Assembly: GCA_017463365.1 (NCBI GenBank)
Contig: JAFTPH010000049.1
Location: 1 to 41,681, forward strand
DNA from: Bacilli bacterium
Lineage (GTDB): Bacteria > Bacillota_I > Bacilli_A > ML615J-28 > CAG-313
DNA: 41,681 bases
Direction of reading: 5' to 3'
Below the pieces are notes generated by a model. That model ran no database searches, was not told where the DNA came from, and saw only the letters and a program-made list of their open reading frames with translations. The position numbers were made by a program, and so were the translations under genes. Numbering within the stretch: the first letter of the stretch is position 1; each line of letters starts with the position of its first letter. Below, piece after piece: positions 1 to 7,979 of the stretch.

Positions 1-74
1 AAAAAAACGGAAACTAACTTTACAAAAGAGGCAATTGTTTAAATTGCTTTATTCTTTTATAAAATCAATTTCCG
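1..74 (-). terminator. Long terminator hairpin of the structured RNA
   Basis: Three stacked stems are visible: CGGAAA with TTTCCG (8-13/69-74), AAAAGA with TCTTTT (24-29/53-58) and GCAATT with AATTGC (31-36/42-47). On minus the hairpin is followed by at least seven U at the window edge. It could also be an attenuator of a downstream gene that is out of view. Confidence 0.6.
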
Positions 75-185
75 CGTAAAGTCTTTTGCGCAATCTAAGG
101 TACCGGTAATCCGGAGTAGCAAATCATCAATATATATATTATCCCAAAAGACTAGATGATATATTTTAAAACTTGACTTTTTACT
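1..185 (-). ncRNA. Putative structured RNA or 5' leader (unidentified)
   Basis: A promoter at 219-191 on minus would start a transcript near 184 that runs to the window edge. The RNA is rich in pairing. GUCUUUUG (152-145) can pair with CAAAAGAC (88-81), and AUCAUC (160-155) with GAUGAU (128-123); these two stems cross, so they form either a pseudoknot or mutually exclusive states. A small CCGG-AUUA-CCGG hairpin lies at 114-103. The 3' end is a long three-tier hairpin (74-8) followed by a U-run. No protein-coding frame of note is present. The size, about 180 nt, fits a stand-alone RNA such as 6S RNA, or a riboswitch/attenuator leader for a gene left of the window. I could not match it to a known class; T-box, SAM, TPP, purine and FMN signatures were looked for and not found. 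Confidence 0.5.
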
Positions 186-190
186 CTTAT

Positions 191-219
191 ATTATACCAT
201 TTTTTATGTGTTTTGTCTA
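191..219 (-). promoter_or_regulatory. Sigma-A-type promoter of the structured RNA
   Basis: On minus, TAGACA (219-214) and a perfect TATAAT (196-191) are separated by 17 bp. It lies downstream of the terminator of the ABC exporter operon, so it begins a new transcription unit. Confidence 0.65.
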
Positions 220-274
220 TAGTTTTTTTAGAATTTTTGTTGAGAAAATAATAAGAAATGAACTTTCCTTATAA

Positions 275-303
275 ATAAAAAAGGCGGGAAACATACCCGC
301 CGT
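275..303 (-). terminator. Terminator of the first ABC exporter operon
   Basis: The hairpin GGCGGG-7 nt-CCCGCC (283-301) is followed on minus by TTTTTT. It is about 75 bases after the stop of the last exporter gene. Confidence 0.85.
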
Positions 304-375
304 AAATGGACCAGTGTTATCTTGACCAGCCCTTTTATTATACTTAAATTATATAATATTTATTTTAATTTTTTG

Positions 376-6525: not shown

Positions 6526-7392
6526 TTATTTTTGTTCTAATTTTTTTGTTATTTCTCTAAAAAATTCTTCATTCCATAAATCTAATTTATCTTTATCCTT
6601 AACAAATGGCATCACATCATCTATAGCTTGTCTAAAATTTATCTTTGAAAATCTATCATATAGCATCTCTTTCAAACTATCAATTGTTAAATTGTAATTT
6701 TGATCAATAAATTTTGACTGTATCAATTTTTCTTTAAGAGTTTCCATATTAACCTTCGCGCCAATCGACAAAAAGAAAACATAATCATAAAAGTCTCTTC
6801 CTTTCACTCTTGTTTTCCAGTTGCGACACAAGCATGCATGTATTTTTCCTGCAAATAGTGTTTCAAGATCACAAATTTTAACTTTGTACGGAGCTGGCAA
6901 CAGTCCAATTTTTTCTTCATATGTTGCCCCTGATGCTGGAAGAATATCCACTTCAAACTTTATTCTTATTATTTCATCTTTATTTATTAACTCAACATCT
7001 GAATTTTGATTATAAAATGTCATAATATGTTCTTTTGTATTCCCCTTCAAGAAAGCTGATTTAATATTAGAGTCTATTGTTTTTTCTTTTTCTGTAACTT
7101 TGAATGACAAACCCAGACTACTTGTTTCATTTTCAATATAATTAAAGTATTTAGTCAAATCAAAGTTTTTATTTTGATATATCAAAGTAAAATCCAGATC
7201 TTCACTGAATCTATCTAAACCATAAAAAATTCTTAACGCAGTACCACCGTAAAAAGCAGCCTCCTTAAAAAAACCCCCCCTTGATAAACCACATAATATA
7301 ATTTCTTGCACAATTTCTTTAATTGCATTTTTCTTATCTTCAATATTGTCTGTTTGATATTTTGCTAGCATTTGTTCCAATATTTTATTCAT
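6526..7392 (-). CDS. AbiEii/AbiGii-family nucleotidyltransferase toxin
   Basis: 288 residues of the nucleotidyltransferase AbiEii family (type IV toxin-antitoxin systems, also used in abortive phage defence). The signature is near the N-terminus: FYGGTALRIFYG (about 48-59) followed by RFSEDLDF, which supplies the Gly-Gly and Asp-x-Asp metal/nucleotide site. A later block (KICDLETLFAGKIHACLCR, about 170-189) with KGRDFYDY is also typical. Family members are thought to modify tRNA or other targets and stop growth. The gene overlaps the upstream antitoxin gene by ATGA. I see no clear terminator after it, so some read-through toward the XRE gene is possible. Confidence 0.9.
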   Translation of the reverse strand: MNKILEQMLAKYQTDNIEDKKNAIKEIVQEIILCGLSRGGFFKEAAFYGGTALRIFYGLDRFSEDLDFTLIYQNKNFDLTKYFNYIENETSSLGLSFKVTEKEKTIDSNIKSAFLKGNTKEHIMTFYNQNSDVELINKDEIIRIKFEVDILPASGATYEEKIGLLPAPYKVKICDLETLFAGKIHACLCRNWKTRVKGRDFYDYVFFLSIGAKVNMETLKEKLIQSKFIDQNYNLTIDSLKEMLYDRFSKINFRQAIDDVMPFVKDKDKLDLWNEEFFREITKKLEQK

Positions 7393-7979
7393 CTATTTCC
7401 CACCTTTATATATTTCATTAGAAAGTTTAAATTTGTAGAGTGATATAAAGGAGCCATCCTTAATATATCCTCTTTATTTAAATTATTGAATTTTTCTTCG
7501 TCTATTCTTAAATCTTCAAATAATAATTCTTCAAATTCTTTTATGTTTTTAACTGGTGATATAGTATATAATTTATCACATAAAGCTTTTTCTGCTGATG
7601 CAATTTGATATGAATAACCATCTTCAACACATAAAGATACCCCTAAATAATAGACATCTTTGGGAATATCTCGATATGTATAATAACCAAAATGATTTTT
7701 ATATTTTTTTATTTTACGCTTTTTTAAGGTTGCACATGTATATGTTTTATATACAGTTTCAATTATTAGCTGTTCTTTATACAAAACATAATCAAATGAT
7801 AAATATGAAGGTCCATAAATAAACTGTGCAAGTTTTTCTCCATTAGTTCTAGAGTTTGTTTCATATAGGCCTTTAACTAGTGGAAATAAATTACCTCTTT
7901 TTATTTCTCTCGATATTTTTCCCTTTATGTCCGAAAAATTAAAATATTGCTTTTTTAATTGTTCAACTGTAATTACCAT
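7389..7979 (-). CDS. AbiEi-like antitoxin / transcriptional regulator
   Basis: 196 residues placed directly upstream of, and overlapping by four bases, the AbiEii toxin gene. The N-terminus (about 1-45) fits a small winged-helix domain ending in KRGNLFPLVKGLYETN, which resembles the RGxLxRVxRGvY-type wing of AbiEi antitoxins. The middle (SYLSFDYVLYKEQLI and IASAEKALCDKLYTI) matches the C-terminal antitoxin region seen in this class. Known AbiEi proteins repress their own operon by binding inverted repeats and neutralise the toxin without forming a stable complex. A good promoter and a large inverted repeat lie just upstream. Start supported by AGGAGG. Confidence 0.82.
   Translation of the reverse strand: MVITVEQLKKQYFNFSDIKGKISREIKRGNLFPLVKGLYETNSRTNGEKLAQFIYGPSYLSFDYVLYKEQLIIETVYKTYTCATLKKRKIKKYKNHFGYYTYRDIPKDVYYLGVSLCVEDGYSYQIASAEKALCDKLYTISPVKNIKEFEELLFEDLRIDEEKFNNLNKEDILRMAPLYHSTNLNFLMKYIKVGNR

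What the first reader, a model, noticed from the sequence alone, without database searches (positions are those of the whole stretch)
1..219. Promoter-driven structured RNA with crossing stems at the left edge
Minus strand carries TAGACA-17-TATAAT, then about 180 nt with two stems that cross (160-155 with 128-123; 152-145 with 88-81), a CCGG hairpin and a three-tier terminator. Crossing stems point to a pseudoknot or a two-state switch. No riboswitch class was recognised.
Basis: partly seen in the sequence, partly recalled or inferred. Interest (0 to 1): 0.6.

Follow-up and report, generated by a model that had tools for sequence, protein, structure and literature searches.

The report
Pseudoknot leader RNA before defence genes
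The left edge of this stretch carries a small folded RNA, unknown to the public RNA library searched, that recurs in gut bacteria in front of several unrelated candidate virus-defence genes, where it probably acts as a built-in brake on their expression.

Summary
The feature is real. Window 219-1 (minus) is one of four 97-100% identical 275-bp copies in this genome and one of 29 full-length homologues from gut and rumen Bacilli of one order. The 152-145/88-81 pairing is a true pseudoknot: it survives replacement of its sequence on both strands (97.4% of cells paired, 5 of 8 pairs with two-sided changes). The other crossing stem (160-155/128-123) is not conserved; the real stems are P1, P2, P3 and a GCG/CGC pair, then a 21-bp terminator. 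No Rfam match; not coding. Of 27 copies with visible downstream sequence, 24 precede RhuM, YhcG/DUF1016, Schlafen-AlbA_2, AbiE or TnpB genes. In most, the ribosome site follows the terminator too closely for another promoter, so expression needs read-through. Best reading: a cis-acting leader RNA that throttles defence genes, arranged like AbiF/RCd22 but shared by unrelated proteins. How the core tunes read-through is inferred. Against it: AbiE copies have their own promoter, and most RhuM/YhcG/Schlafen genes in these genomes lack the RNA, so an independent or antitoxin-like RNA remains possible. The gene behind the window's own copy lies off the contig.

The parts
191..219 (-). sigma-A type promoter TAGACA-17-TATAAT, extended -10 (TG)
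   Evidence: the -10 region is conserved in homologues
72..184 (-). RNA core (inferred start at G184) with P1, P2, P3, P4 and the pseudoknot
   Evidence: covariance model R1 match 72-185, 110.9 bits; pair counts
126..177 (-). P1 inner stem, 177-173 with 130-126 (outer 184-181 with 122-119)
   Evidence: helix 1: 94.2% of cells paired, 5 of 6 pairs with two-sided changes
134..164 (-). P2 hairpin, 164-156 with 142-134 (C158 is a mismatch in this copy)
   Evidence: helix 2: 92.7% paired, 5 of 9 pairs with two-sided changes
81..152 (-). pseudoknot helix: P2 loop 152-145 with 88-81
   Evidence: helix 3: 97.4% paired, 5 of 8 pairs with two-sided changes; slid versions of the whole structure 30-50% paired
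103..114 (-). P3 hairpin CCGG-AUUA-CCGG
   Evidence: helix 4: 93.1% paired, 3 of 4 pairs with two-sided changes
74..91 (-). P4, GCG 91-89 with CGC 76-74
   Evidence: helix 5: 96.6% paired, one compensatory G-C to A-U; weak covariation
1..74 (-). intrinsic terminator: 21-bp stem 74-54/28-8, inner hairpin 47-42/36-31, T tract 7-1
   Evidence: A-U to G-C and A-U to U-A changes on both arms
220..275 (-). upstream part of the 275-bp repeat, with the left-end motif ATAAGGAAAGTTCAT (273-259) shared with a TnpB transposable element
283..301 (-). terminator of the preceding ABC-transporter gene (376-2247 minus); the repeat begins in its T tract

Best explanation
A new structured leader RNA of about 180 nt. 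A strong promoter starts a transcript at about 184 (minus), which folds into a pseudoknotted core and then meets an intrinsic terminator. At most loci the ribosome site and start codon of a candidate defence or mobile gene lie within 85 nt past the T tract, with no room for a promoter, so the gene can only be expressed by read-through. The RNA therefore acts in cis as a throttle (transcription attenuator) on costly genes: RhuM, YhcG/DUF1016, Schlafen-AlbA_2, TnpB. Shown: fold, family, terminator, gene association, spacing. Inferred: that termination is efficient, that the core (directly on RNA polymerase, or through a host or phage factor) raises read-through under some condition such as infection, and that this is the selected function.
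For: Covarying pseudoknot and stems. Terminator stem with two-sided changes. 24 of 27 copies with visible downstream sequence precede RhuM 7, YhcG 5, SLFN_AlbA_2 4, AbiE 4, TnpB 4 (PADLOC names RhuM PDC-S05/S23, YhcG PDC-S02, AbiEi/AbiEii). In 18 of the 25 copies with a gene (these 24 plus the unknown gene of L123) the start codon is 14-85 nt after the T tract (for L008 and L065 read from the printed sequence). RNA similarity follows the host genus, not the protein family: between genera, mean identity is 0.646 for same-family pairs (22) and 0.660 for different-family pairs (118). At one chromosomal site with homologous flanks the same leader is followed by AbiE in G010/G011 and RhuM in G012 (L053/L054 versus L057b). 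Pseudoknot mismatches occur in 3 of 5 copies whose gene is broken or absent (L043, L065, L126) and 0 of 21 with a full-length gene (Fisher p 0.0038, post hoc, copies not independent). Published precedent of the same layout: AbiF/RCd22 (abstract and passages of PMC12373285).
Against: All four AbiE copies have a TTGACA-17-TATAAT promoter between the RNA terminator and the gene (read), so the RNA is not their leader. In L058, L061 and L124 the gene starts 132-294 nt downstream. Of 66 RhuM/YhcG/SLFN loci fetched from seven genomes, only 17 carry the RNA, so it is not required for these families. No shared antiterminator pairing was found. Two copies have no gene (L049, L126). No expression data. 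The pseudoknot covariation largely reflects one old switch between two subtypes plus a few further changes. The window's own downstream gene is unseen.
Confidence: 0.5

Rival explanations
1. An RNA antitoxin-like system: the terminated RNA is the abundant product and binds and silences the downstream protein, as in AbiF/RCd22 or type III toxin-antitoxin pairs; the leaky terminator only sets the RNA:protein ratio.
For: Layout promoter-RNA-terminator-RBS-gene is that of RCd22-abiF (passages of PMC12373285). Another leader in the same genomes precedes a ToxN-family gene (119 bits, PF13958) and also YhcG and SLFN genes.
Against: One RNA family serves at least five unrelated protein families, and RNA similarity does not follow the protein. 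No tandem repeats in the window copy. No AbiF or ToxN gene among the representative downstream proteins scanned. The downstream gene differs at one site while the RNA stayed.
Confidence: 0.17
2. A free-standing small RNA gene (trans-acting or housekeeping-like) that is spread next to mobile genes, with no role in their expression.
For: Own promoter and complete terminator; AbiE genes behind it have their own promoter; copies without a gene exist (L049, L126); no shared antiterminator.
Against: 24 of 27 copies precede these gene families. In most, the gene has no room for any other promoter. Loss of pseudoknot pairing was seen only with a broken or missing gene.
Confidence: 0.18
3. A functional part of an IS605/TnpB-type transposable element (left end and leader of tnpB) that is scattered with the element.
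For: In G010 the RNA lies inside 1.7-kb elements 99.2% identical between L051 and L060, with left-end motif, tnpB and right end. All four copies in the window's genome start with that left-end motif behind a terminator T tract.
Against: Most homologues lack the left-end motif and precede non-transposon genes at conserved chromosomal positions in sister species. The right end of L051 was not found behind the genes of L006 or L044.
Confidence: 0.1

Closest known systems
AbiF / RCd22 system of Clostridioides difficile (and Rfam abiF RNA)
   Same: Promoter, structured RNA of about 100-130 nt, intrinsic terminator, no second promoter, RBS, defence gene expressed by read-through (passages of PMC12373285).
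   Different: RCd22 has two abiF motifs and a single partner protein; here one pseudoknotted unit precedes RhuM, YhcG, SLFN_AlbA_2, TnpB and AbiE genes, and no abiF match appears in the Rfam scans.
Type III toxin-antitoxin systems (ToxIN, AbiQ, CptIN, TenpIN)
   Same: RNA pseudoknot upstream of the gene, separated from it by a terminator.
   Different: No tandem repeats; representative downstream proteins are not ToxN-like.
put RNAs of phage HK022 and the EAR element of Bacillus (recalled from memory)
   Same: Structured cis RNAs near or within a transcript that make RNA polymerase ignore terminators; an analogy for how the core might work.
   Different: No Rfam match; antitermination was not tested.
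TnpB omega RNA / IS110 bridge RNA (recalled from memory)
   Same: Structured RNA carried by a transposable element in some copies.
   Different: Lies upstream of tnpB with its own terminator and no 3' guide; most copies are not in a transposon.

Membership tests
Any Rfam 15 family | score at or above the family's gathering threshold | tested here: not met
   0 matches in the window; only weak matches at E-value thresholds for the window copy and two homologues
Type III toxin-antitoxin | tandemly repeated RNA antitoxin units | tested here: not met
   no tandem repeats in window 1-300
Type III toxin-antitoxin | ToxN/AbiQ-family toxin gene downstream | tested here: not met
   Pfam and PADLOC scans of representative downstream proteins; a ToxN gene was found only behind a different leader (L199)
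AbiF ncRNA system | Abi_2 (AbiD/F) gene downstream | tested here: not met
   no Abi_2 match among representative downstream proteins
AbiF-like layout (works like) | promoter, RNA, terminator, RBS-gene without internal promoter | tested here: met
   18 of 25 copies with a gene have the start within 85 nt of the T tract; the AbiE copies fail
Riboswitch / classical attenuator | mutually exclusive antiterminator and terminator | tested here: inconclusive
   pairings of the terminator 5' arm with the core differ between homologues
Riboswitch / classical attenuator | ligand or trigger changes read-through | not testable with these tools
   needs in vitro transcription or reporter assays
put/EAR-type antitermination RNA | RNA makes RNA polymerase resistant to downstream terminators | not testable with these tools
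   experiment needed
TnpB guide (omega) RNA | located at the 3' end of tnpB/right end with a 3' guide | tested here: not met
   the RNA lies 5' of tnpB and ends in a terminator

The most novel reading that the evidence does not exclude
A shared defence regulon built from RNA: one pseudoknotted leader, portable and independent of the protein behind it, keeps many unrelated anti-phage genes in a genome switched off by termination and releases them together when a common signal (for example phage-altered RNA polymerase, translation arrest or a phage factor) raises read-through.
Probability: 0.25. Interest if true: 0.85.

Novelty: new variant of a known kind. Interest (0 to 1): 0.6.

Why it matters
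How bacteria keep costly defence genes quiet yet ready is largely open. Known RNA controls (type III antitoxins, AbiF) are each tied to one protein family. A single covarying RNA in front of RhuM, YhcG, Schlafen-AlbA_2, AbiE and TnpB genes suggests a control independent of the gene it guards, and gives a sequence model to find more. It also offers guilt-by-association support for RhuM and YhcG as defence genes.

Tried and rejected
Known RNA class: rejected. Small protein: rejected; ORFs differ in frame, position and start between homologues. Classical antiterminator switch: folded the core plus terminator 5' arm of 13 copies, no shared pairing; a 4-5 bp pairing of the P3 5' side with the terminator's first bases recurs in some (L051, L122, L123) but not others. 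Wider spread: the class-level search found nothing outside the order (7 of 395 genomes, all in the order; order 8 of 43; family 6 of 15); viral contigs 0, phages 0, plasmids 0. The two hits of the pattern outside these gut Bacilli (L111, L114) match only the short motif (16-20 bits). General enrichment of terminators just before RhuM/YhcG/SLFN genes without this RNA: 7 of 42 versus 18 of 179 control genes, but the detector also missed all 17 R1 terminators, so it says nothing. A guide-like reading of the variable 5' P1 strand was considered and dropped: the variants still mostly pair with P1's 3' strand, often by G-U.

Rows dropped: L062 (promoter-only match) and L064 (degenerate remnant) before the alignment; L052 (core identical to L051), L056 (5' half not alignable) and L059 (cut at contig end) before A2 (24 of 27 aligned copies). 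A3 holds all 29 matches at E <= 1e-8 in 28 sources. L007 and the window (downstream unseen) are left out of the 27; these two and L008 (gene cut by the contig end) are left out of the 26 in the gene-status count.

Literature: the searches (open-licence PMC only) listed no paper describing this RNA or an RNA shared by RhuM/YhcG/Schlafen genes; I saw listings, the abstract and passages of PMC12373285, and passages of PMC9252829.

Full report
What is there. On the minus strand the window begins (219 down to 1) with TAGACA-17-TATAAT, a transcript of about 180 nt and a long intrinsic terminator whose T tract is the very end of the contig; the window is contig C32 of a 1.74-Mb, 65-contig genome. The RNA folds far better than shuffles (z -5.67). 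No Rfam family matches at gathering scores.

It is a multicopy unit. The window's genome holds four copies 97-100% identical over 275 bp, plus one diverged remnant. Each of the four begins in the T tract of the preceding gene's terminator and carries the motif ATAAGGAAAGTTCAT or a one-base variant of it. One copy precedes a TnpB start, one a Schlafen-AlbA_2 gene split by a stop; the other two, including the window's, end at contig edges.

It is a family. BLAST found relatives in 11 of 15 genomes of the taxonomic family, several of them short partial matches. I fetched their surroundings, aligned 24 cores (A2), counted pairs and built model R1. R1 finds the RNA in 6 of 15 genomes of the family, 8 of 43 of the order and, of 395 sampled from the class, only in 7 genomes of that order. 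A pattern scan gives names: goat cecum, goat rumen, water-deer rectum and rumen Bacilli MAGs such as RGIG1779, SIG222, RGIG9028, Tb.RUG.122 and RGIG3506; 20 of 22 hits are of this kind and two are short motif matches elsewhere. There is no match in viral contigs, phages or plasmids.

Structure. On 29 homologues (A3), 94.7% of 869 cells are standard pairs, against 30-50% for slid versions; 19 of 30 pairs have two-sided changes (shuffles 11.0, none of 500 as high). The pseudoknot helix 152-145/88-81 is 97.4% paired; two subtypes replace the sequence on both strands and L048 adds a further G-C to A-U change. A3 is fitted to the nested stems of R1, but the pseudoknot was not in the model, so its count does not lean on the fit. 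Because the main change is shared by groups of related copies, the number of independent events is small. The terminator keeps pairing through changes such as A-U to G-C and A-U to U-A. No reading frame is conserved.

Neighbours. Of 27 copies with visible downstream sequence, 24 precede RhuM (7), YhcG/DUF1016 (5), SLFN_AlbA_2 (4), AbiEi-AbiEii (4) or TnpB (4); one precedes two proteins without any match (L123) and two no such gene (L049, L126) (families by Pfam and PADLOC for representatives; the rest by sequence similarity of the loci). About 15 loci are distinct, since many copies are orthologues in sister species. PADLOC lists RhuM as PDC-S05/S23 and YhcG as PDC-S02. Conversely, of 66 RhuM/YhcG/SLFN loci fetched from seven genomes only 17 carry the RNA.

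Why a leader. In 18 of 25 copies with a gene (the 24 plus L123) the start codon lies 14-85 nt past the T tract behind a ribosome site, so the gene depends on read-through; in L053, L054, L055 and L057 (AbiE) a TTGACA-17-TATAAT lies between, and in L058, L061 and L124 the gene starts 132-294 nt away. RNA similarity follows the host genus and not the protein family, and one site with homologous flanks has AbiE in two species and RhuM in a third behind the same leader. Copies with a mismatch in the pseudoknot are exactly three: L043 (frameshifted rhuM), L065 (tnpB with frameshifts and a deletion) and L126 (no gene); none of 21 copies with a full-length gene has one, while two copies with broken or missing genes (L006, L049) keep it. 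I noticed this pattern after the fact and the copies are related, so the Fisher value 0.0038 is only indicative.

Mechanism. I commit to a cis-acting attenuator leader (0.5). Termination and read-through are expected from the anatomy, and the published AbiF/RCd22 locus has the same layout with mapped read-through transcripts (passages of PMC12373285). What the pseudoknot does is not shown; because no shared antiterminator was found, action on RNA polymerase (put/EAR-like, recalled analogy) or through a bound factor is my inference. An RNA antitoxin, a free-standing small RNA and a transposon part are the rivals.

Side finding. Genes of the same families that lack this RNA sometimes have other leaders with terminators: one precedes ToxN-family, YhcG and SLFN genes, and one contains a short reading frame running into the terminator. 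This suggests that promoter-RNA-terminator leaders may be a general habit of defence genes in these bacteria, but I did not establish enrichment.

Noticed in passing
L199:1501-1605 (+), L195, L196/L149:2461-2576 (-), L189:1374-1491 (+): A second leader RNA (GUAAAAACAAACAC...GUUUGU... terminator) precedes a ToxN-family gene (PF13958, 119 bits), a YhcG gene and a Schlafen-AlbA_2 gene in genomes that carry the main RNA; the 5' ACAAAC could pair with the terminator loop.
   Followed up: partly
L158:855-990 (+), L161:2473-2604 (-), L136:1897-2038 (-), L146:830-972 (+): A third leader before YhcG and RhuM genes contains a short reading frame of about 16-20 codons that runs into the 5' arm of a terminator just before the gene's ribosome site, like a leader-peptide attenuator.
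   Followed up: partly
window 286-333 (-): Sub-threshold match to Rfam DUF3800-XI RNA (28.3 bits, gathering 37.8) just downstream of the ABC-transporter gene and right beside the RNA; no DUF3800 gene was seen.
   Followed up: no
L044, L046, L053, L054, L055, L057, L058, L124, just after the RNA terminator: Where the main gene starts further away, a ribosome site and start codon still follow the terminator but lead into a tiny frame (0-9 codons), as if a former gene start was left behind.
   Followed up: no
window 6526-7979 (-): A gene pair that looks by eye like AbiEii and AbiEi (not scanned with HMMs); the RNA model finds no convincing copy in front of it.
   Followed up: no
L051 and L060 (G010): TnpB-only elements 99.2% identical over 1.7 kb, inserted just after a terminator hairpin's T tract, carrying the RNA between left end and tnpB.
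   Followed up: partly
G000:C56:41322-41407 (-): Degenerate 86-bp remnant of the RNA core in the window's own genome.
   Followed up: no
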